Of a DNA stretch of 27,744 nt, positions 7,060-19,592 are shown in pieces. A model generated the notes under the pieces. It was given only the letters and a program-made list of their open reading frames with translations. It made no database searches and was not told the DNA's origin. The position numbers and the translations under genes are program-made. Source of the stretch: a virus; the IMG/VR virus record IMGVR_UViG_3300031823_000021, positions 1-27,744 of that record; one strand, 5' to 3'. How positions within the stretch are numbered: the stretch's first letter is position 1; each line of letters begins with the position of its first letter.

Positions 7060-7080
7060 CAGTGCATGGGGGATGCACTG
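7060..7080 (+). promoter_or_regulatory. Perfect hairpin over the HNH start codon
   Basis: CAGTGCAT (7060-7067) and ATGCACTG (7073-7080) are exact inverted repeats with a GGGGG loop. The start ATG at 7066-7068 lies in the left arm and loop edge, so the folded mRNA would hide it. See finding. Confidence 0.75.
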
Positions 7081-7869
7081 ACACCGACCAAAATCTGCAC
7101 GCGGTGCGGTGAAGAAAAGCCGGCCACACGCGAATTCTTCTACCGGGACCGCGGTCAACGAGCGGGCCTGTCCTCACAGTGCAAGCGGTGCGTTTCCAAC
7201 ACGGAACGCACCCGCCGCGTGCGCAATGCCAAGGCGATCGCCGCTAAGCGGAAGGCGTATAACCAAGCGCACGCCGAGCAAATAAAAGCCTATGGTCGTG
7301 AGTACAGGCAGCGAAATCGCGAAGCCAACCGGCTCCGAATGCGGGCTTATCGCAAGGCAAAACCGGAGATCGTCGCCAAGCACGAGCGAGCCCGGAAGAA
7401 CGTTACCGAACGTCGTGGGCAACAGAAGCGGTACTACTCCGAGAACCGCGACCGTCTGCGCGCTCAACAGGCCGAATACCGCGCCGCGAATCGAGAGCGG
7501 CTCCTGGCCGCTCGGCGAGCGAAGCGTGAGATCGAAAAGCACGACCCGAAATTCAAGGTCGCGAAGGCGATATCCGGTAGCCTGCTGCAGGCGTTGCGGC
7601 ACAAGAAAAACGGCTCAATGTGGGAAACGCTCGTCGGGTATGACCGCGAGCAGCTGGTCCAGCACATCGAGCGTCAGTTCAGGCGCGGCATGTCCTGGGC
7701 CAACTTCGGAACCAAATGGCACATCGACCATATCCGGCCGGTGTCGTCTTTCGCCTTCGCATCGGCCGATGACCCGGAGGTCACGGCCTGCTGGGCGCTC
7801 ACCAATCTGCGGCCACTTTGGAAGCTCGACAATCTCTCGAAGCACGCCAGGCGGACGCACCTGATCTGA
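7066..7869 (+). CDS. Free-standing HNH endonuclease, homing type
   Basis: Two hundred and sixty-seven residues. The N-terminus has a four-cysteine zinc module, C11-x2-C14 (CTRCG) and C39-x2-C42 (CKRC). A long, very basic helical middle follows (residues 45-160, rich in R, K, Q and N with recurring Y-R-x-x-N-R-E patterns), likely to wrap DNA. The C-terminal nuclease shows WHIDHIRP (H219, D221, H222), N247 in LTNLRPLW and N256 in KLDNLSK. This layout is known from phage mobile HNH endonucleases. It lies between terL and portal, two essential genes that are often adjacent, as expected of a homing gene. No Shine-Dalgarno is visible and the start is in a hairpin. Confidence 0.9.
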   Translation: MGDALTPTKICTRCGEEKPATREFFYRDRGQRAGLSSQCKRCVSNTERTRRVRNAKAIAAKRKAYNQAHAEQIKAYGREYRQRNREANRLRMRAYRKAKPEIVAKHERARKNVTERRGQQKRYYSENRDRLRAQQAEYRAANRERLLAARRAKREIEKHDPKFKVAKAISGSLLQALRHKKNGSMWETLVGYDREQLVQHIERQFRRGMSWANFGTKWHIDHIRPVSSFAFASADDPEVTACWALTNLRPLWKLDNLSKHARRTHLI

Positions 7870-11041: not shown

Positions 11042-12472
11042 ATGCCAAAGGTCGCTGACCTGCTGAAGCAGCGCGGGGTCGCCTTCGATGCGTTCAAGGC
11101 ACTCGCCGAGAAAGACATCCTGACCGCCGAGGAACAGGCGGATTACACCACCCGCCGCGACGAGGTCAAAAACCTCGACAATCAGATCGATCGCGCCAGG
11201 GAAGCGCAGGAGCTCGCCGCGCGCGATGCGCGCCCGGTCGGTGGGCAGGCCCGCGTCCCGGCAGCGCCCGAAAAAGACCCGTATCTGAGCCTCGAGGCGG
11301 CGCAGGCCCGCGGTCTGACGACCCACAAGGGCCTGATCGTCGGCGGCATGATGCGCATGGTCGGCCTCGCTGCCGAGCGGCACGCGAAACCGATCGAGGT
11401 CGCAACCGAACTCTATGGCGCGGATCACCCGATCGTCCGCGCCCTCGGCGTCGGCACTGGCCCCTCGGGCGGCTTCATCGTCCCTCCCGACTACATGAAC
11501 GAGATCATTGAACTGCTGCGACCGCTCGCAGTGGTTCGCGGTTCCGGCCCGCGCACGATCCCGATGCCCAGGGGCACGATGCGGCTACCCGGTCAGGCGT
11601 CGGCAGCGACTGCCAGCTATGGCGCGGAAAACACCGCGATCCCGCAGACGCAGCAAGTGCTCCGCTCGATCGTCGCGACGTACAAAAAGCTCACTGCATT
11701 GGTTCCTGTTTCCAATGACATGATGAGATATTCCGACCCGGCCGTCGATGCCTTCGTCCGTGATGACCTCGTAAAGGTTGTGGCGCTCAGGGAGGACCTG
11801 GCATTTATCCTCGGCGACGGCACTCAGGACACGCCCCGCGGCTGGCTGAGCTTCGCCAATGGCTGGGTTGTCGCCGGCGGCGGCACTGCCGGCGTCTTCT
11901 CGACCACTGCGAATTCGACGCTCGCGGTGAACGGCACCGATCCGGCGAATTCCACCGGCGGCAACTTCATCACGTCAAACGAGAGCTACACGTTGTCGAC
12001 GGTGGCGACGGAGCTCGGCGGTGCAGTGAACCGCCTCGACACCGCGAACGTGCCCGACACCAAACGCGTGTGGTTCATGAACCCGCGCAGTTGGAACTAC
12101 CTCAACAACGTGCAGAACTCGCTCGGCGTCTACGTCTATCGCGACGAATTGAGCAAGGGCACGCTGCTCGGGTATCCGACCAAGAAGACCACGCAGATCG
12201 GCACGAATTACTTCGACGCAAGCGGTGCTCACACCGATTGCTCGTTCGTGTTCCTCGCCGAGATGGACGAGACGATGTTGCTCGATTCGATGCAGCTGGA
12301 ACTGGCTGTGTCGCGCGAGGGCACATACGTCGACTCGGGCGGGAACACGGTGTCCGCGTTCCAGTCCGATCAAACCATCATTCGCGCGATCGCCGAGCAC
12401 GACTTCCAGATGCGCCACGACCAGGCGGTCGCGGTCATTCAGGCGGTCCGCTGGGCGCCGGCGATTTCCTAA
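11042..12472 (+). CDS. HK97-family major capsid protein
   Basis: Four hundred and seventy-six residues. The first ~115 form the scaffolding delta domain: a charged coiled coil (AEEQADYTTRRDEVKNLDNQ) and a linker, expected to be removed by the S78 protease. From about residue 135 the mature capsid fold begins: GPSGGFIVPPDYMNEIIELL, the E-loop strand block around GTMRLPGQ, TALVPVSNDMMRYSDP, and ILGDGTQDTPRGWL. The C-terminal P/A-domain segments (VWFMNPRSWNYLNN, then TIIRAIAEHDFQMRH) are typical. It forms the icosahedral shell. Ribosome site GGAG is 7 bases before the ATG, inside the repeated leader. A terminator follows immediately. Confidence 0.97.
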   Translation: MPKVADLLKQRGVAFDAFKALAEKDILTAEEQADYTTRRDEVKNLDNQIDRAREAQELAARDARPVGGQARVPAAPEKDPYLSLEAAQARGLTTHKGLIVGGMMRMVGLAAERHAKPIEVATELYGADHPIVRALGVGTGPSGGFIVPPDYMNEIIELLRPLAVVRGSGPRTIPMPRGTMRLPGQASAATASYGAENTAIPQTQQVLRSIVATYKKLTALVPVSNDMMRYSDPAVDAFVRDDLVKVVALREDLAFILGDGTQDTPRGWLSFANGWVVAGGGTAGVFSTTANSTLAVNGTDPANSTGGNFITSNESYTLSTVATELGGAVNRLDTANVPDTKRVWFMNPRSWNYLNNVQNSLGVYVYRDELSKGTLLGYPTKKTTQIGTNYFDASGAHTDCSFVFLAEMDETMLLDSMQLELAVSREGTYVDSGGNTVSAFQSDQTIIRAIAEHDFQMRHDQAVAVIQAVRWAPAIS

Positions 12473-12557: not shown

Positions 12558-13043
12558 ATGACCGACATGGTTGTGCAAAAGAACATCGGCTCTCTCATCA
12601 CTGTCCGCGAAGGGTCGGCGAGCCTTTCCAACACCGCCGGCGCCGGCAGCAACAACACCACGAAAGCCGGGATTTCGATCGATCGCCAGGGCCTCGGCAG
12701 CCCCGGCACGCCGCCCGAGTCGGCGGTCGCTAGCGTGCTCTACGCTGCGACCCTGGCTTCCGGTTCGACGCTGGCAATCCAGGTCATCGTCAGCCACGCG
12801 CCGGACAATTCGACCTGGACGACGTACACGTCGAATTCAAGCACGTCGATCGTGGTCGCGACCGGACCGTCGGGCGGTGGTGCGGTGGCCGGGCAGCTGA
12901 ACCTGTCGGTGAACCTGTCGTCGGCGCAGCGCTATATCCGGGTCGATCACGTCCCGAACCTGAGCCGCGCCGGCACCGACACCTCGATCACTCAGGCTGT
13001 CGCGGTGCTCGCCGGCTTCGACCGTCTGGCGTCGCCGACCTGA
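12558..13043 (+). CDS. Head decoration-like beta-rich protein
   Basis: ATG 12558 is chosen over an in-frame ATG at 12528 because AAGGAA (12542-12547) lies 10 bases before it; the product is 161 residues. It is Ser/Thr/Gly/Ala-rich with alternating strands (ASVLYAATLASGSTLAIQVI, then SHAPDNSTWTTYTS, then VAGQLNLSVNLSSAQRYIRV), consistent with a jelly-roll or Ig-like fold. Position right after the capsid gene is where decoration proteins are usually found. Function is thus inferred from place and composition. Its stop overlaps the methyltransferase ATG (TGATG). Confidence 0.65.
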   Translation: MTDMVVQKNIGSLITVREGSASLSNTAGAGSNNTTKAGISIDRQGLGSPGTPPESAVASVLYAATLASGSTLAIQVIVSHAPDNSTWTTYTSNSSTSIVVATGPSGGGAVAGQLNLSVNLSSAQRYIRVDHVPNLSRAGTDTSITQAVAVLAGFDRLASPT

Positions 13044-13591
13044 TGCTGATCAGGCTCGCGGTCGACTTTGGCCCTTGCACGATCGACGAAGACCTCGTCG
13101 GTCTGCAGGGCCTCGTCACATGCCTGGGCCGGCCTCGAGTGATCGAGGTCGGTTCCTGGCTCGGCCGCACCGCGCTGGCGATGGTCGAGGCGGGTGCCGA
13201 GTTCGTGCATTGCGTCGACACGTGGGACGGCACCAACGACCCGGAAGACGAGACGTTCGCGCATGGGGCAAAGCACGGCCATGCTGCGCTGCTGAACGCC
13301 TTCCGCGTCAACGTCGCGGCGCATCTTGGCCAGACGATCTATCACTATATCGGCACGTCCAGCTATTGGGCCGACCGATGGACCGTGCCCGCCGACCTCG
13401 TCTTCATCGACGCCGAGCACAGCTACGAGGCAGCGCTCGCGGACATCACGCTGTGGACGCCGCACGTGCGCCCCGGCGGAATTTTGTGCGGCCATGACTT
13501 TTGCGAGGCGTGGCCGGGCGTGAAGCGGGCGGTCGAAGAAACCGGGCCTTTCAACATCGTCGGGAATTCAGTGTGGTGGCGCCAGTTATGA
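13043..13591 (+). CDS. Class I SAM-dependent methyltransferase
   Basis: One hundred and eighty-two residues. Motif I is VIEVGSWLGRTALAM (33-47), the SAM-binding Gly loop. The acidic residue after strand 2 is D59 in HCVDTW. LVFIDAEHSYEAALADI (119-135) and GGILCGHDF (145-153) identify the Methyltransf_24 type, which includes sugar and small-molecule O-methyltransferases. No DNA-methylase motif (NPPY or DPPY) is present. It is not a usual virion gene. It overlaps the decoration-like gene by TGATG and the radical SAM gene by ATGA, so the three are coupled. A role in modifying a glycan or the radical SAM product is inferred. Confidence 0.88.
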   Translation: MLIRLAVDFGPCTIDEDLVGLQGLVTCLGRPRVIEVGSWLGRTALAMVEAGAEFVHCVDTWDGTNDPEDETFAHGAKHGHAALLNAFRVNVAAHLGQTIYHYIGTSSYWADRWTVPADLVFIDAEHSYEAALADITLWTPHVRPGGILCGHDFCEAWPGVKRAVEETGPFNIVGNSVWWRQL

Positions 13592-14784
13592 CCGATGGGA
13601 TCTACCGGCATCCGCCCGGGCGCTTGTCGCGCTGGGGGGTTGTCGACGTCGGCCTGAAGTGCATGCACTCATGCCAGTTCTGCTATTACGCAGGCGGCAT
13701 CGACGACCACGCCGACCCCTTTCACGGGATGCGGCATGCGAAGTTCCTGCCGACCGAGCACCTGCTCGAGCTCGCCCGTTCATTGAAGCAGAACGGCTTC
13801 GTCGGCTTCGATGTCACCGGCGGCGAGCCTTGCTTGCATCCGGGGATCGTCGAGCTCGCCGCCGAGGCAAAGCGCCTCGGCCTCGCCATGCGCGTCATCA
13901 CGCTCGGCCAGTACCTGAACCGGCCGATGAAGCATTCGTCGCCGGACCGGCCGCTGATCGAAGCGCTGCTCGACGCCGGCGTCGCTGACTTTCTCTTGTC
14001 GGTTCACGCCGTCGAAGACGCCGATTTCAGGCGCATCACCGGCGAGTCCTGGTCAAAGCTGCGCGATGCGATGGTCAGTCTCGACCTGAGCGATTTCGAC
14101 TACTGCACCAACACCACCGTCCACGAGGGCAACTTCCGGCAGCTGCCGGAGATCGCCGACGAGATCATTCGGCATCGGGTCTATGCCTCGAACCTGATCG
14201 TGATGAACGCCTATTATGCCTGGTCGAAACCGGGCGGCGGCGCCGGCGACGTCCAGGGCCACTACGGCCAGATCCGGCCTTATCTGATCGATGCCCGGGG
14301 TCGCCTCGAAGCGGCCGGGATCGCGGTCAATATCCGATATGCGCCGCTGTGCACCGTGAAGGGCGCCGAGCGCAACCTGGTCGGCATCACCGGCGTGCGG
14401 CACGACCCGCACGAATGGATGAATGAGATCGATCATACCTCGCCGGGACCGGCCGAAGAGATGGGCCGGAAAATCGGCATCCGCGATTTCGACACCGGCA
14501 CGCCGCTGATCCCCGTCAGCGAGCCGGGCATCGTCGCGCGCCGCGCCGGCAAGGTCTACCCGGAGAAGTGCCACTCCTGCGCCGCCGCCTTCGTCTGCGA
14601 CGGCATCGATCCGCGATACCTGGCTGAGCGCGGCGACGCCGAGCTCGAGCCTTACACCGAGTTTCGGGGCGATCTGCTCGACCGAGAGCGGCTCGCTTAT
14701 CTGCCCGCCTTCATCTGCAAAACCGCGCCGTTCGCCGACGCGCGTGGCGCAGTGCGGGCGGCTTTTGGGAGGTCAAATCGGTAA
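13588..14784 (+). CDS. Radical SAM enzyme with auxiliary cysteine cluster
   Basis: Start ATG 13588 (ATGA with the methyltransferase stop), 398 residues; the frame extends further upstream without need. The radical SAM motif is C25-x3-C29-x2-C32 (KCMHSCQFCYY), with GGEP at 78-81 in FDVTGGEPCLHPG. The C-terminal part has C255 (PLCTVKG) and C328-x2-C331-x5-C337 (KCHSCAAAFVCDG), like a SPASM/twitch auxiliary iron-sulfur cluster. Such enzymes use a 5'-deoxyadenosyl radical to modify peptides, sugars or nucleosides. The substrate cannot be read from the sequence. The glycosyltransferase gene follows its stop without a gap. Confidence 0.93.
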   Translation: MTDGIYRHPPGRLSRWGVVDVGLKCMHSCQFCYYAGGIDDHADPFHGMRHAKFLPTEHLLELARSLKQNGFVGFDVTGGEPCLHPGIVELAAEAKRLGLAMRVITLGQYLNRPMKHSSPDRPLIEALLDAGVADFLLSVHAVEDADFRRITGESWSKLRDAMVSLDLSDFDYCTNTTVHEGNFRQLPEIADEIIRHRVYASNLIVMNAYYAWSKPGGGAGDVQGHYGQIRPYLIDARGRLEAAGIAVNIRYAPLCTVKGAERNLVGITGVRHDPHEWMNEIDHTSPGPAEEMGRKIGIRDFDTGTPLIPVSEPGIVARRAGKVYPEKCHSCAAAFVCDGIDPRYLAERGDAELEPYTEFRGDLLDRERLAYLPAFICKTAPFADARGAVRAAFGRSNR

Positions 14785-16221
14785 ATGTGGCTCCTACCTT
14801 CGCGCGGCCGGCCGGGCAATCTTGCCCGGTTTTTTAATGCCTATCGCCAGACCGGCGGATCGACGCCGGGCATGGTGATCGTCGATACCGACGACTACCT
14901 CGCGCATCGACCAGCCTATAGCGAGCTCGCGCTCCCGATGGGCTGGTTGCTTAAGATCACCAGCGGCGTCACCCAAGGCGAAAAGATCGCCGAGGTCTGG
15001 CATCAGGTCAAAGACTGCGCCTGGCTCGGCCTTATCGGCGACGACTGCGTGCCCGAGACGATGGGCTGGGATCGCAGGCTGACGGAAGCTCTCGACGGCA
15101 CCAACTTCGTCAGCTGCGACGATGGCTGGCAGGCGCCGAAACGGGTCGGCAATTGCTGGGTCATGTCCGGCGACCTGGTGCGCGCCGTCGGCTGGATCTT
15201 CCCGCCCGGGCTGCAGCACCTTTACGTCGACGACGTATGGGAAGAGATCGGCCACGAGGCCGGTTGCTGGCGCGTCCTAATGGACGTCAAGGTCGCCCAC
15301 CGTCACGTGCTGAAGGGCGAGGCCGCGCCCGACGATACGCACCGGGCCGTCTATGGCAGTGACGGCAGCGATCCGCAGGCCGGCATGTGGCCGCTCGATG
15401 CCGCCGCCTATACCGGGTGGCAGAAATCGGGAAAGGCCGACACGATCGCCGCGGTGCGTGCGCTCAACCCGGGGCGCAACGCAGCCGATGCTGACGAAGA
15501 GCAAAAGGTGCAGGCCCGGATGGCGCGCGCCAAATCGCGCTTCGTGCTGATCGCCTCGCCCGTTCACCGCGGCTTCGAAGAGCCGTTTGTTACCTCGATC
15601 ATCCAGACGGTGATCCTGCTCGAGCGCCTCGGCGTCCGGCAGGATTGTCAGTGGGTGAAGGGCGGCAGCAACCTTCCGAAAAGCCGCAATCAATTGGCGG
15701 CTGGCTTCCTCGCCGGCGACTGGACCGACCTCATTTTCATCGACACCGATATGGGGTGGGACCCGAACGCGGTGGTGCGCCTCCTGGCATCGGATAAGGA
15801 TGTCATCGCCGCCGTCGGCCGGCGCAAATGCGAGGAGGTCAGCTGGTGCTGCAACCTCCCGGCGGGCCCTCTTCGGCAAGACGACATGGGTGCCCTCGAG
15901 GTCCCGCGCGCCGGCACCGGGCTGATGAAGATCACCCGCGATGCGCTGGAGCAGATCATCGCCGCCAGGCCCGACCTGAAGGGCCCGGGCGACGACAACA
16001 TGAGCCCCGGCGAGCGCGCCAATTATCACCACTTTTTCCGCTTCGGCGATGACGACAGCGGCGAGGATTATGTGTTCTGCGACCTCTTCCGCTCGGTTGG
16101 CGGCGAGGTCTGGATCGATCCCGAAATCTGGCTCTCGCATACCGGCGAGAAGGCCTATGCCGGCAAGTTCGCCGACGCGCTGAAGCCGGTCGTCACCGTC
16201 ATTCAGGACAAGGCCGCTTAA
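14785..16221 (+). CDS. Two-domain GT-A glycosyltransferase-like protein
   Basis: Four hundred and seventy-eight residues; ATG directly follows the upstream TAA, with GGAGG 12 bases before. The N-terminal domain (1-215) begins LPSRGRPGNLARFF and has LIGDDCVPETMGWD with D86-D87 as a DxD-like site. The C-terminal domain (252-478) has KSRNQLA, then LIFIDTDMGWDPNAVVRLL with D320-x-D322, and GEDYVFCDLFRSVGGEVWIDP, the usual acceptor-side motif of GT2-like enzymes. It is therefore likely a fusion of two glycosyl transfer domains, making either two successive transfers or one catalytic and one regulatory domain. Phage enzymes of this sort glycosylate virion proteins, DNA or host surface. A terminator hairpin lies in codons 10-17. 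Its stop shares four bases with the reverse gene. Confidence 0.87.
   Translation: MWLLPSRGRPGNLARFFNAYRQTGGSTPGMVIVDTDDYLAHRPAYSELALPMGWLLKITSGVTQGEKIAEVWHQVKDCAWLGLIGDDCVPETMGWDRRLTEALDGTNFVSCDDGWQAPKRVGNCWVMSGDLVRAVGWIFPPGLQHLYVDDVWEEIGHEAGCWRVLMDVKVAHRHVLKGEAAPDDTHRAVYGSDGSDPQAGMWPLDAAAYTGWQKSGKADTIAAVRALNPGRNAADADEEQKVQARMARAKSRFVLIASPVHRGFEEPFVTSIIQTVILLERLGVRQDCQWVKGGSNLPKSRNQLAAGFLAGDWTDLIFIDTDMGWDPNAVVRLLASDKDVIAAVGRRKCEEVSWCCNLPAGPLRQDDMGALEVPRAGTGLMKITRDALEQIIAARPDLKGPGDDNMSPGERANYHHFFRFGDDDSGEDYVFCDLFRSVGGEVWIDPEIWLSHTGEKAYAGKFADALKPVVTVIQDKAA
14812..14835 (+). terminator. Intrinsic terminator inside the glycosyltransferase 5' end
   Basis: CCGGGCAA (14812-14819) and TTGCCCGG (14822-14829) are exact complements (7 bp with an ATCT loop), directly followed by six T. 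It begins 27 bases after the start codon, within the codons for RPGNLARFF. Confidence 0.75.
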
Positions 16222-16451: not shown

Positions 16452-16640
16452 GTGAAACTCGTGGAATTTACGCGCGACATGGCCCCGCACGTCGCCGGCG
16501 AGAGCCGCCTCGTGCCCGACACGCTGGCCGACACGCTCGCGGCCGAGGGCGCCGTCATCAACGTCCGCCCCTGGCCTGACCACCAGCCCGATCCGAAACG
16601 CTACCTGCCGCGCGTCAAGCGGCCTGAGAGGACGCGATGA
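16452..16640 (+). CDS. 62-residue hypothetical protein
   Basis: Starts at GTG 16452 with AAGG 7 bases upstream. Sequence MKLVEFTRDMAPHVAGESR, then a helix PDTLADTLAAEGAV and a basic end PKRYLPRVKRPERTR. Short proteins of this kind are frequent in head-tail regions of related phages, but I do not know a function. The stop overlaps the next ATG (ATGA). Confidence 0.6.
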   Translation: MKLVEFTRDMAPHVAGESRLVPDTLADTLAAEGAVINVRPWPDHQPDPKRYLPRVKRPERTR

Positions 16641-17038
16641 CCCAGCTGCTCCCGGCGACCGCGATCACCGCTCCTGTCACCGCGCAAGTCGGCCCAACCG
16701 TCAAATTCAACGCCCGGCCGGACACCCTCGCGATCCAGGCGAACCTTATCGGCGGATCGAGCGGCAGCAGCATCGCGCTCTACGTGCAAACCTCCCTCGA
16801 TAAGGGCGCGAACTGGATCGATATCGCCTCGCTTGCTTTCACCACGGCGGCGACGCGCGTTGTGGTGAACCTGTCCTCGCGCACGCCGGTTACGACGCCA
16901 CTTGTCGCGACCGATGGCTCGCTGGCCACCGGACAGAAAGACGGCATTCTCGGCGACCAATTCCGCACCAAGCTGACCACGACCGGCACCTATAGCGGCA
17001 CGACGATCGCCGTCGATATCAGCGGCAATCAGGTCTAA
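16637..17038 (+). CDS. Beta-rich hypothetical virion protein
   Basis: One hundred and thirty-three residues, coupled to the upstream gene by ATGA. Alternating strands (VKFNARPDTLAIQANLIGG, then SSIALYVQTSLDKGANWIDI, TRVVVNLSSRTP, TGTYSGTTIAVDISGNQV) resemble the composition and probable sandwich fold of the decoration-like protein at 12558, including the pattern of a strand, then S-x-D-x-G/N-x-x-W. It may be a second decoration or stabilising protein; this is inference. Confidence 0.6.
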   Translation: MTQLLPATAITAPVTAQVGPTVKFNARPDTLAIQANLIGGSSGSSIALYVQTSLDKGANWIDIASLAFTTAATRVVVNLSSRTPVTTPLVATDGSLATGQKDGILGDQFRTKLTTTGTYSGTTIAVDISGNQV

Positions 17039-17044
17039 CGGGAG

Positions 17045-17058
17045 CCCGGCCGGCCGGG
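17045..17058 (+). promoter_or_regulatory. 14-bp perfect palindrome overlapping a ribosome site
   Basis: CCCGGCCGGCCGGG reads the same on both strands. Its 3' arm runs into GGGAG, the only Shine-Dalgarno of the gene starting at 17066, so a hairpin could hide it. Confidence 0.4.
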
Positions 17059-17065
17059 AGCGAGC

Positions 17066-17335
17066 ATGGCCGATTTTGACACCAAGCTGTCGGTCAGCGG
17101 CGTCAATTCGCCCTTCGGTATATCCACCGACGTCTCGCTTCGCGATGTGATCGCCGCGGAGAGCGGCGACGCCGCGGAATGCCTCTGGGGCGATGGAACA
17201 TTTCGGGCGCCGACCGGCGGCGGTGGCGGCAGTTCGGTGCAGATCGGCGGGTATACGATTTTTGTCGATACCGACGGCAGCTTAAAGATCAAGGCGCCCG
17301 ACGGTTCGGTCACGCCTCTGGTGATCAAGACATGA
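17066..17335 (+). CDS. Hypothetical fibre-associated protein
   Basis: Eighty-nine residues; GGGAG lies 5 to 7 bases before the ATG. It begins MADFDTKLSVSGVNSPFGIS, has ECLWGDGTFRAPTGGGGG, and ends with short strands (QIGGYTIFVDTDGSLKIKA). The W-G-D-G-T-F-R-A-P segment followed by polyglycine is of the kind found at the ends of phage fibre proteins. It probably belongs with the fibre-like protein that follows 13 bases downstream. Confidence 0.6.
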   Translation: MADFDTKLSVSGVNSPFGISTDVSLRDVIAAESGDAAECLWGDGTFRAPTGGGGGSSVQIGGYTIFVDTDGSLKIKAPDGSVTPLVIKT

Positions 17336-17348
17336 GGGATCGGGGTCA

Positions 17349-18008
17349 ATGAGACATTCTTTCGGCATTGTCGCCTGTCCGCGTGGACATAGCGCACGCC
17401 GGCGCGCCGCCTGGCGCTGGGCACTATGGGCGATGGCCATCGTCTTCACGCCGGTTCTGGCGATGGGCGCTTACCAGCCCGCCTTCGTCCCGACCACATT
17501 TCTGAGCAATTCGGCGAAGACCATCGTCGCCTCCGTCACTGGCAGCATCACTTCCGGCCATCTGGCAACTTTTGCCGATAACGTCGGCACCATTCAGGAC
17601 GGCGGCGCCGCCCCGACGGGCACGGTATCGAGCGTCACCTGCGGGACCGGTCTTTCAGGCGGTACCTTCACGACCTCGGGAACCTGTTCGCTGGCCAACA
17701 TTGTGCCCACGATCTTCACCGGGTCGAGTCCCCTCACTCTCGGGTCGACCAACAATCTCGAAGAGATCATCGAGATGGGGACGCCGGCGGCACTCACCAT
17801 AAACCTTCCAGCCTCGCCGGCCGATGGGACCTATCAGTGCGTCAAAGACGGGCTGAAGAATTTCGCCACCGACAACGCCACGATCAAGACTACCGACAGC
17901 AGCACCATCGACAAGGTCGCCGGCGCGACCGGGTATGTGATGAACCAAAACGGGCAGCAGAACTGCTTCTATTACAGTGCCTCGAAGACGAACTGGTACA
18001 TCTTCTAA
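17349..18008 (+). CDS. Fibre-like protein with N-terminal hydrophobic signal
   Basis: Two hundred and nineteen residues. The N-terminus is basic (PRGHSARRRAAWRWALW), then AMAIVFTPVLAMGA, a plausible Sec signal or anchor. The next part, SITSGHLATFADNVGTIQDG followed by TGTVSSVTCGTGLSGGTF, is a repeat pattern well known from phage tail fibres and head fibres. The C-terminal third (ALTINLPASPADGTYQCV, then NCFYYSASKTNWYIF) is beta-rich. Four cysteines follow the signal region, as would suit disulfides outside the cytoplasm. A signal on a virion-type fibre is odd and is noted as a finding. Confidence 0.65.
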   Translation: MRHSFGIVACPRGHSARRRAAWRWALWAMAIVFTPVLAMGAYQPAFVPTTFLSNSAKTIVASVTGSITSGHLATFADNVGTIQDGGAAPTGTVSSVTCGTGLSGGTFTTSGTCSLANIVPTIFTGSSPLTLGSTNNLEEIIEMGTPAALTINLPASPADGTYQCVKDGLKNFATDNATIKTTDSSTIDKVAGATGYVMNQNGQQNCFYYSASKTNWYIF

Positions 18009-18012
18009 GCCG

Positions 18013-18573
18013 ATGTCCCGTCTCCTAGCAGCGGCAGCCCTGTGCGCGTTTTTCTATTCGAGCGCAGGCTGGGCCGGGCATGCCGAGATCGCCCCGGCGG
18101 TTGCATCGGGCGCGACGCTGCCCGATACGCTCAACCAGGAATTCCATGTCTCGACCGCGCAGCTGGGCGCGGCATCGACGACAACACTCGGCGTTGTTAC
18201 CGGCCTTTCCCAGGCACTGACCGCCGGGAAGACCTATCTCTGCGAAGCGCATCTTTCCGTTTCGACCGGGTCGAGTTCGGCTGGCGCCAAAGCCGGACTG
18301 GTCGCCACCAACAGCCTTTCCGCGACATCGATCAGCTATACGGCACTGGTCTACTCGGGAACCACGCTCTCGGCCAATACGACCGCGACGGCCCTCGCCG
18401 CAACCTCGGGCGGCATCGGCGCCACCGCGAGCGTCACTGACATCTTCATCACCGGGGCGATTGTCGTGAACGCGGCCGGGACGATCAACGTAGAGGGCGC
18501 TCAGAACGTCAGCAGCAGCACCGGCACGAATTTCCTGATCAATTCGACATTCAGCTGCGTGCGGGTGAACTGA
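18013..18573 (+). CDS. Secreted beta-rich protein
   Basis: The frame is open upstream, but ATG 18013 gives a perfect signal peptide MSRLLAAAALCAFFYSSAGWA, with probable cleavage after the AGWA region; the product is 186 residues. The mature part is Ser/Thr/Ala-rich beta sequence (TTTLGVVTGLSQALTAGKTY, then SVTDIFITGAIVVNAAGTIN) with two cysteines, CEAH and SCVRVN, that could form one disulfide. It looks like a jelly-roll or C1q-like module. It is 4 bases after the previous stop and probably works with that protein. Confidence 0.6.
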   Translation: MSRLLAAAALCAFFYSSAGWAGHAEIAPAVASGATLPDTLNQEFHVSTAQLGAASTTTLGVVTGLSQALTAGKTYLCEAHLSVSTGSSSAGAKAGLVATNSLSATSISYTALVYSGTTLSANTTATALAATSGGIGATASVTDIFITGAIVVNAAGTINVEGAQNVSSSTGTNFLINSTFSCVRVN

Positions 18574-18698: not shown

Positions 18699-19592
18699 AT
18701 GGGCCTGCAACGCGTCACCACGCTGATCACGCCCGCGGCGACTTACGCTCTCGTTGCGCTCGAGGATGTGAAAATCGAGCTCGGCATTCCCGACACCGAC
18801 ACCTCCAAAGACGCGCTGCTGACCCGGTACATCAATGAGGTATCGGGCGCCATCTCGCGCTATTGCAACCGCTCGCCGCTAGACTTCAACGAAGCATCGT
18901 TCCCGGTCGAGCTCGTCCAGGACCTCTTTTATCCCGATCGCGACGCCTATCCCTACCAGGTCCCGGGCGGCACTAGCGCGCTGCAGCTGGCGCGCTGGCC
19001 GCTCGTGCCGACCGTCACGCTGATGACGAGCGCCGATGCGCCGAGCGGGAATGTCCTGCCCTTCGCCAGCACCAGCGGGATCGCGCAAGGCCAGCCTGTC
19101 AACGGATTGAATTTGCCGCCCTCCGCAACGGTTGCCGAGGTCAGCGCAACAAGCGTCACCCTGAATGCACCGGTCGCCCTCGATTTGCCGGCCGGGACGA
19201 AGATCAATTTCGGCATATCGATCGTTATCGTCGACCCGCCCGGCACCAGCACCGCGCTCGTCCAGAACACCGATTTCGTCGTCAATCCCGCGTTCGGGCA
19301 GCTGATCAGGCTGGATCAGTTCCAGGCCTACCCAACCCTGTGGACGCCCGTAGCGACGACTGTCGTCTACAGCGGCGGCTATAGCTCGATCCCCGACGAT
19401 GTTCAGGGGGCGGCGATGCGCTGGATCACGCAGCGCTTTAGCGATCGCGGCCGGAACCCGAACCTGCGGGCAAAAGAAGAGCCCGGCGTCGGGCGCGAAG
19501 AGTATTGGGTCGGCGGCCCGCCGATGAGCGGTGGGGTACCGGCCGAGATCGCCGAACCGCTCGATAGCTACCGGACTCCAGTGACGGCCTGA
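18699..19592 (+). CDS. Head-tail connector protein (gp6-like) with beta insert
   Basis: Two hundred and ninety-seven residues; usual gp6-like connectors are 100-200. The helical parts are typical: LEDVKIELGIPDTDTSKDAL, LLTRYINEVSGAISRYC, then near the end DDVQGAAMRWITQRFSDRG. The core strands (FVVNPAFGQLIRLD, VVYSGGYSSIP) match the family. Residues about 109-172 are extra: a strand-rich stretch with GIAQGQPVNGLNLPPSATV that resembles a stand-alone beta module. The protein docks below the portal and closes the head. It is preceded by a repeated leader element. Confidence 0.85.
   Translation: MGLQRVTTLITPAATYALVALEDVKIELGIPDTDTSKDALLTRYINEVSGAISRYCNRSPLDFNEASFPVELVQDLFYPDRDAYPYQVPGGTSALQLARWPLVPTVTLMTSADAPSGNVLPFASTSGIAQGQPVNGLNLPPSATVAEVSATSVTLNAPVALDLPAGTKINFGISIVIVDPPGTSTALVQNTDFVVNPAFGQLIRLDQFQAYPTLWTPVATTVVYSGGYSSIPDDVQGAAMRWITQRFSDRGRNPNLRAKEEPGVGREEYWVGGPPMSGGVPAEIAEPLDSYRTPVTA

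What the first reader, a model, noticed from the sequence alone, without database searches (positions are those of the whole stretch)
13043..16221. Coupled methyltransferase / radical SAM / double glycosyltransferase cassette in the head module
Three enzyme genes not needed for virion assembly sit between a decoration-like gene and the connector. They are joined by TGATG, ATGA and TAA-ATG junctions, so they are translated together. The radical SAM enzyme has both the CxxxCxxC site and a C-terminal C/CxxCxxxxxC group like a SPASM or twitch cluster. The glycosyltransferase has two GT-A-like domains with separate acidic sites. Together they look like a pathway that builds and attaches an unusual, methylated sugar or modifies a peptide. 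A virion surface protein encoded next door, for instance the Ser/Thr-rich protein at 12558 or those at 16637-18573, would be a natural target. The substrate and the link are inference.
Basis: partly seen in the sequence, partly recalled or inferred. Interest (0 to 1): 0.8.

Follow-up and report, generated by a model that had tools for sequence, protein, structure and literature searches.

The report
Phage capsid-coat sugar-decorating gene cassette
Next to its capsid genes this phage carries enzymes that most likely build and attach an unusual sugar to a small protein coating the outside of the virus head, and related phages swap the sugar-tailoring enzymes while keeping the coat protein and its sugar-attaching enzyme together.

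Summary
Three coupled genes follow a small head gene: a class I methyltransferase, a radical SAM enzyme with one extra four-Cys site, and a two-domain glycosyltransferase (GT). A fixed three-gene cassette does not hold. The radical SAM gene recurs in 9 distinct phage contig groups, with the same GT in all 8 that reach it, but this methyltransferase in only 2; two others carry an unrelated FkbM methyltransferase. In 61 related head loci, presence of the GT follows the tree of the upstream head protein almost perfectly: 2 changes, against 14 on the capsid-protein tree and 20.6 by shuffling. That head protein is a probable relative (E 0.014) of the BPP-1 capsid cement protein. The GT C-domain folds like STIV A197 and collagen hydroxylysine GTs. 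Bacterial homologues of the radical SAM lie in surface-glycan loci. Best reading: the GT glycosylates the cement protein on the capsid surface; the radical SAM enzyme and interchangeable methyltransferases tailor the sugar. Sugar, acceptor residue and activity are inferred. Virion glycosylation is known; radical-SAM tailoring of it and a co-inherited cement-GT pair were not found described in the searches made.

The parts
11042..12472 (+). major capsid protein (HK97 type); control gene for the co-inheritance test
   Evidence: phrog_10 1.5e-51
12558..13043 (+). cement-like head protein, proposed acceptor of the sugar
   Evidence: profile of 61 homologues: best PDB hit is the BPP-1 cementing protein 3j4u, E 0.014; co-inherited with the GT
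13043..13591 (+). class I methyltransferase, Methyltransf_24 (proposed O-methylation of the sugar)
   Evidence: PF13578 3.2e-17 over its full profile
13588..14784 (+). radical SAM enzyme with one auxiliary four-Cys site (proposed sugar tailoring)
   Evidence: PF04055 7.6e-15; seven Cys in 15 of 15; model pLDDT 89.2
13660..13683 (+). radical SAM site C25-x3-C29-x2-C32
   Evidence: invariant in 15 of 15; positions
14569..14598 (+). auxiliary site C328-x2-C331-x5-C337, with C255 at 14350-14352
   Evidence: invariant in 15 of 15; positions
14785..16221 (+). two-domain glycosyltransferase
   Evidence: phrog_14945 6.3e-22, phrog_1574 1.1e-14
14785..15429 (+). GT N-terminal domain (GDD at residue 85, VDD at 148); in every rSAM-bearing locus with a readable GT
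15499..16158 (+). GT C-terminal GT-A domain (IDTD at residue 319, GED at 426, SHTG at 451); the part shared by most related phages
   Evidence: STIV A197 Z 17.5, rmsd 2.4, 162 aligned
18699..19592 (+). head-tail connector, downstream border of the variable slot
   Evidence: phrog_442 1.5e-16

Best explanation
A capsid-surface glycosylation module. Shown here: the genes, their motifs, the fold of the GT C domain, and the co-inheritance of the cement-like protein with the GT. Inferred: the C-terminal GT-A domain transfers a sugar from a host nucleotide-sugar to the cement-like protein at 12558, which coats the capsid. Where present, the N-terminal GT domain adds a second sugar. The radical SAM enzyme converts that sugar (epimerisation, deoxygenation or decarboxylation) on its nucleotide carrier or on the chain, and the methyltransferase O-methylates it. 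Tailoring enzymes are exchanged between phages, which would give each phage a different capsid glycan. The benefit (shielding, or binding to host or environmental surfaces) is a guess.
For: GT state needs 2 changes on the 12558 tree of 61 distinct rows (shuffled mean 20.6) against 14 on the MCP tree; connector, protease and two other trees give 5 to 13. GT and 12558 distances correlate at 0.65, partial 0.58 given MCP (26 rows). The 12558 family profile hits the BPP-1 cement protein first (E 0.014). GT C domain closest to STIV A197, then protein GTs LH3 and COLGALT1. rSAM with GT in 8 of 8 readable loci, including one where the pair sits in a tail module. rSAM only with the two-domain GT: 8 of 8 against 1 of 19. 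Unrelated methyltransferase families in the same slot. Bacterial rSAM homologues among GT2, flippase and cytidylyltransferase genes. No long hydrophobic span in MT, rSAM or GT.
Against: No direct evidence of activity, donor, acceptor or virion glycan. Cement homology is marginal in E-value, and phrog_9522 'major tail protein' matches 14 of 61 homologues. The rSAM fold ties with the peptide enzyme SuiB and with viperin. Relatives of the GT in other phages lie also among replication genes. The methyltransferase is not conserved with the pair.
Confidence: 0.58

Rival explanations
1. The radical SAM enzyme modifies the cement protein itself (a peptide modification) and the GT then sugars the new group, much as lysyl hydroxylation precedes glycosylation in collagen.
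For: SuiB (peptide maturase) ties with BlsE in fold, Z 19.2 against 19.7; PqqE is second by profile; the GT C domain resembles hydroxylysine GTs.
Against: The C-type GT occurs without rSAM in 18 distinct loci, so no rSAM-made acceptor is needed there; bacterial rSAM homologues lie in glycan loci.
Confidence: 0.17
2. The enzymes alter host surface polysaccharide (lysogenic conversion or superinfection exclusion) and merely sit in the head module.
For: 7 of 14 related records carry an integrase, so part of the group is temperate; rSAM homologues belong to surface-glycan loci.
Against: Late-gene position with coupled translation; co-inheritance with a head protein; no membrane span in the GT; GtrA in 0 of 10 related records.
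Confidence: 0.1
3. The link of GT and 12558 protein is only hitch-hiking of adjacent genes exchanged as one block; the GT acts elsewhere.
For: They are adjacent; mosaic exchange of blocks is normal in phages (general knowledge).
Against: The MCP gene is adjacent too, mostly within about 40-130 bases by tblastn coordinates, yet uncouples freely (14 changes); 28 of the 29 GT-bearing rows fall in one group of the 12558 tree.
Confidence: 0.1
4. The GT and partners glycosylate phage DNA.
For: Phage GTs acting on DNA exist (Pyle 2024, seen only as a reference in PMC12619734).
Against: Thymidylate-synthase-family genes in 0 of 10 related records; the Tet/JBP search (0 of 10) had no working control and says nothing; late head position.
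Confidence: 0.03

Closest known systems
STIV A197 glycosyltransferase and glycosylated coat protein B345 (PMC10551542, passages)
   Same: GT-A domain, best fold match of the GT C domain (Z 17.5); virus-encoded, with a glycosylated capsid protein as suspected acceptor
   Different: archaeal virus, one GT domain, no rSAM or methyltransferase partner described in the passages read; there the acceptor is the major coat protein
Mycobacteriophage virion glycosylation (Freeman 2023, not held; seen only as cited in PMC12619734)
   Same: glycans on capsid and tail-tube proteins of a tailed phage
   Different: GTs not compared here; no rSAM mentioned in the passages seen; acceptors are capsid and tube subunits, not a cement protein
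Actinoplanes phage phiAsp2 Pas33-Pas35
   Same: GT, GT-methyltransferase fusion and GT in a row behind tail or head genes
   Different: no rSAM; 27% identity to the GT N half
P22-type phage MW202573
   Same: coat gene, then methyltransferase, then GT C-domain relative (annotated A197), then tail adaptor
   Different: unrelated capsid lineage, single GT domain, no rSAM annotated
Bordetella phage BPP-1 cement protein Bbp16 (PMC3863775, passages)
   Same: probable relative of the 12558 protein; small jelly roll on the capsid outside
   Different: E 0.014 only; glycosylation of Bbp16 did not come up in the passages seen
BlsE cytosylglucuronate decarboxylase (7vob)
   Same: best solved relative of the rSAM by profile (2.5e-11) and fold (Z 19.7); acts on a sugar (recalled)
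   Different: 28.4 bits against the equivalog cut-off of 400; fold tied with viperin and SuiB

Membership tests
Radical SAM superfamily | CxxxCxxC site and PF04055 above cut-off | tested here: met
   15 of 15 relatives; 55.9 against 29.5 bits
SPASM domain (two auxiliary clusters) | about seven Cys beyond the radical SAM site (recalled) | tested here: not met
   only four further Cys are invariant; fits a one-cluster, twitch-like site
Named rSAM equivalogs PqqE, BlsE, viperin, MoaA | NCBIfam curated cut-off | tested here: not met
   43.3 of 381, 28.4 of 400, 36.3 of 180, 35.1 of 284 bits
GT-A glycosyltransferases | GT-A fold with DxD-type motif, C domain | tested here: met
   A197 Z 17.5, rmsd 2.4, 162 aligned; IDTD at 319
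GT-A glycosyltransferases | GT-A fold, N domain | tested here: inconclusive
   poor model; phrog_14945 glycosyltransferase 6e-22
Anp1 (Pfam PF03452) | Pfam gathering score | tested here: not met
   best 17.6 against 28.8 bits, in L053; window GT no hit
BPP-1-type capsid cement proteins | sequence homology | tested here: inconclusive
   E 0.014, top of 177,635 PDB sequences; 8-row profile 0.095
BPP-1-type capsid cement proteins | jelly-roll fold on the capsid outside | not testable with these tools
Phage virion glycosylation systems | glycan shown on a virion protein and lost without the GT | not testable with these tools
   needs mass spectrometry
Gtr-type O-antigen conversion | membrane GT with GtrA flippase | tested here: not met
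   no hydrophobic span in the GT (max KD19 1.11); PF04138 in 0 of 10 related records, controls rang in 7 of 14; the window's own record is partial and was not in that search

The most novel reading that the evidence does not exclude
A family of partly temperate phages carries a mobile capsid-glycan module in which the cement protein and its dedicated protein GT are inherited as a pair across capsid lineages, while tailoring enzymes (a radical SAM enzyme and at least four unrelated methyltransferases) are shuffled in. Capsid surfaces would then bear phage-specific, radical-tailored sugars: a virion surface code rewritten by swapping enzymes rather than by changing the protein, and a first case of radical SAM chemistry serving a virion.
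Probability: 0.4. Interest if true: 0.82.

Novelty: new variant of a known kind. Interest (0 to 1): 0.66.

Why it matters
Why phages sugar their virions, and on which proteins, is largely open. This locus names an acceptor candidate, its GT and a set of interchangeable tailoring enzymes, with natural presence/absence contrasts between closely related capsids. It points to chemistry (radical SAM) that the searches made here did not find reported for virions, and it offers a direct test (mismatched cement/GT pairs) that can be run with recombinant proteins.

Tried and rejected
Rejected: a fixed three-gene cassette; Ser/Thr content as a target marker (21.1% against 20.1%); homology of the 12558 and 16637 proteins (hhalign probability 0.1%). 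Gtr-type conversion: GtrA in 0 of 10 records. DNA hypermodification: thymidylate synthase family in 0 of 10; Tet/JBP also 0 of 10 but without a working control, so uninformative.

Led nowhere: PDB sequence search for the GT, single or as profile (0 hits); Pfam for the window GT (0 hits); papers on radical SAM in phage glycan modules and on glycosylated decoration proteins: listings only, no such system seen; one paper was opened (PMC10783043, passages) and it mentions a phage radical SAM gene in another setting.

Errors and limits of mine: one search read the rSAM one base off, so its rSAM rows are void; one search gives the right table but then stopped on a missing file. The MCP 'careful' tree did not finish, so 14 comes from the quick tree. 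Dereplication and the counts 8/8, 1/19, 7/27 and 0/32 were made by hand; the 27 include L009, which is not among the MCP loci. Only 80 of 193 MCP loci were returned; 7 of the 80 gave no readable 12558 homologue (L048, L049, L051, L069, L088, L091, L095) and 5 rows were labelled open and dropped; L003, L014 and the window were added by hand. The label GT+ of L109 rests on its rSAM, as its contig ends before the GT.

Full report
Observation. The window is a 27,744-base virus record. The late operon reads terminase, endonuclease, portal, protease, major capsid protein (MCP), then a small protein at 12558-13043, a methyltransferase (MT), a radical SAM enzyme (rSAM) and a two-domain glycosyltransferase (GT), followed by several small genes and the connector. 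Junctions are TGATG, ATGA and TAA-ATG. MT is Methyltransf_24 and rSAM is PF04055, both above cut-off. The GT halves match phrog_14945 (6e-22) and phrog_1574 (1e-14). The family phrog_2675 matches both the GT N half and the MT, at different parts of its length, as in the GT-MT fusion Pas34 of phage phiAsp2, so GT and MT are joined elsewhere in nature.

The rSAM. Seven Cys are invariant in 15 of 15 aligned relatives: C25, C29, C32 and C255, C328, C331, C337. That is the radical SAM site plus one auxiliary site. The model has pLDDT 89.2. The best solved folds are BlsE (Z 19.7, rmsd 3.5, 274 aligned), viperin (19.2) and SuiB (19.2), which tie. By profile BlsE (2.5e-11) comes before PqqE (2.8e-9) and MoaA (7e-7). 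No NCBIfam equivalog cut-off is approached by the window protein. One genome scan gave 7 bacterial loci with 41-44% relatives. I read ORFs around six of the seven in full or in part plus a seventh edge contig and ran Pfam on ten neighbours in two of them (L018, L020): GT2 enzymes, a MurJ-type flippase, a CDP-glycerol glycerophosphotransferase and a cytidylyltransferase-like protein; 4 of the 10 had no hit. Four or five of the loci also carry a second rSAM paralogue at 26-28%. In 297 genomes of the phylum of G001 (G001 among them) 4 have the enzyme at E below 1e-60, so it is a rare accessory. In one of these it forms the N-terminus of a 3,623-residue open frame whose further stretches read, by eye, like GT2, GT4 and heptosyltransferase-type domains and TPR repeats (no Pfam scan was run on it). 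This points to a sugar substrate, by association.

The GT. The C half (residues 238-459) is a GT-A domain: STIV A197 Z 17.5 (rmsd 2.4, 162 aligned), then human LH3 (16.7), COLGALT1 (14.7), Mnn9 (14.5), mimivirus R699 (14.4). The N half of the model is poor, so its fold rests on family matches.

Neighbourhoods. rSAM occurs in 9 distinct phage contig groups: window; L002/L109; L003; L004/L005; L009; L012/L037; L013/L050; L014; L015/L010/L011/L041/L043. The GT lies just downstream or within about 1.4 kb in 8 of 9; in L002 the contig sequence held ends inside rSAM. The window's MT recurs only in L012. L013 and the L015 group have an FkbM methyltransferase (PF05050, 2e-13 and 6e-14) between rSAM and GT. 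In the others I recognised none. In L009 the pair sits in a tail module between a tail-tube gene (PF18906) and a long tape-measure-like frame, after a small gene of unknown family.

The slot. An MCP scan returned 80 of 193 loci. After the 12558 homologue the commonest enzyme is a lone C-type GT, without N half and without rSAM, in 18 distinct loci (21 of 80 before removing near-copies). Tailoring enzymes vary: Methyltransf_24, FkbM, Methyltransf_23 (L052/L057, also L054), Methyltransf_11 (L062, L092). Such methyltransferases were seen in 7 of 27 distinct GT loci and in none of 32 GT-free rows (p 0.003, hand counts). rSAM is found only with the two-domain GT: 8 of 8, against 1 of 19 rSAM-free GT loci (Fisher p 4e-6, relatedness ignored). 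This suggests that the N domain handles the rSAM-made sugar; it is inference.

Co-inheritance. 61 distinct rows (29 GT+, 32 GT-) were treed for the 12558 protein and for MCP. GT state needs 2 changes on the former (shuffled mean 20.6, lowest 14 of 500) and 14 on the latter (shuffled mean 20.7, lowest 14). Controls on the rows that have them: connector 13 (53 rows; 12558 tree 2), protease 12 (53 rows; 2), g20285 9 (32 rows; 2), 16637 protein 5 (20 rows; 1). The careful 12558 tree again gives 2. 28 of 29 GT+ rows form one group, next to GT-free L076; L040, with a different 12558 type and an extra unknown gene, is the exception. In GT- rows the distance from the 12558 homologue to the connector is mostly under 1.2 kb; the four longer ones (L085, L094, L102, L104) were read for ORFs and no GT homologue was found. 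Pairwise distances of GT and 12558 protein correlate at r 0.65 (partial 0.58 given MCP), of GT and MCP at 0.44 (partial 0.27), in 26 rows. MCP is nearly as close a neighbour as the GT, so adjacency alone does not explain this.

What the 12558 protein is. Its only relative among phage records at E 1e-3 is gp08 of the temperate Rhodobacter phage RcapNL (40%, in two records of one phage), where no GT is annotated beside it. A profile of 61 homologues hits the BPP-1 cementing protein first in the PDB (E 0.014), with a shared VQDSADN segment and an RRYxRV-like end; with 8 rows it was 0.095. The BPP-1 paper (passages) describes this protein as a jelly roll decorating the shell. Against: phrog_9522 'major tail protein' matches 14 of 61 homologues, though phrog_5707 (unknown function) matches 58.

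Mechanism. The C GT domain sugars the cement protein; the N domain, rSAM and MT build a longer, tailored glycan. Order and chemistry are inferred. STIV offers the nearest precedent: an A197-type GT, a glycosylated coat protein, donor and acceptor unproven (PMC10551542, passages). Glycans on mycobacteriophage capsids and tails are reported (Freeman 2023, seen only as cited in PMC12619734).

Limits. C-domain relatives elsewhere lie in head modules (P22-type MW202691 and MW202573; L006) but also among replication or other genes (Ochrobactrum phage, Rhodobacteraceae LS06, MW202753), and an N-domain relative in Streptomyces phage EGole sits among unrelated genes; so the families are not always virion-linked. 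No host is named for the window. Part of the group is temperate: an integrase in 7 of 14 records. Novelty claims rest on paper searches in an open-licence library only.

Noticed in passing
L009:6450-11890: The rSAM-GT pair sits in a tail module (tail tube upstream, long tape-measure-like frame downstream) of a 90 kb contig whose nearby genes did not match the window's head genes: the pair moves between structural modules.
   Followed up: partly
L122:8546-16000: In a genome of the Desulfocurvus phylum sample the rSAM domain heads a 3,623-residue open frame that reads like several GT domains and TPR repeats; upstream lie a Vsr-like gene and a large kinase/ATPase-like gene that look like a defence locus (by eye).
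   Followed up: no
L040:8976-9755, L085:7284-8030, L104:7293-8024: An unknown protein of about 250 residues (IVGS...W.IWGLAWR) fills the same slot behind a divergent 12558-type clade; no Pfam family above cut-off.
   Followed up: partly
L006:7848-10117: Between MCP and connector of another phage lie a GT fused to a rhamnosyl O-methyltransferase/CmcI domain (PF04989, 4e-30) and a second GT.
   Followed up: partly
L016:12244-13434, L019:1297-2451: Desulfovibrionales-type loci carry a second rSAM paralogue (about 27%) and, in L019, a further rSAM-like frame close to the homologue: a multi-rSAM glycan locus.
   Followed up: no
window 16637-17038: The 16637 protein family changes place between phages: before the connector in the window, after it in L003, L014, L056, L068 and L070; L092 and L103 show two copies.
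   Followed up: no
window 7066-7869: An endonuclease VII/HNH-like gene (phrog_1035, 1e-17) lies between terminase and portal.
   Followed up: no
phages MW074126 to HE815464 (15 records): Campylobacter phages encode a distant rSAM relative (about 22% identity over 65-85% of the query) of unknown role.
   Followed up: no
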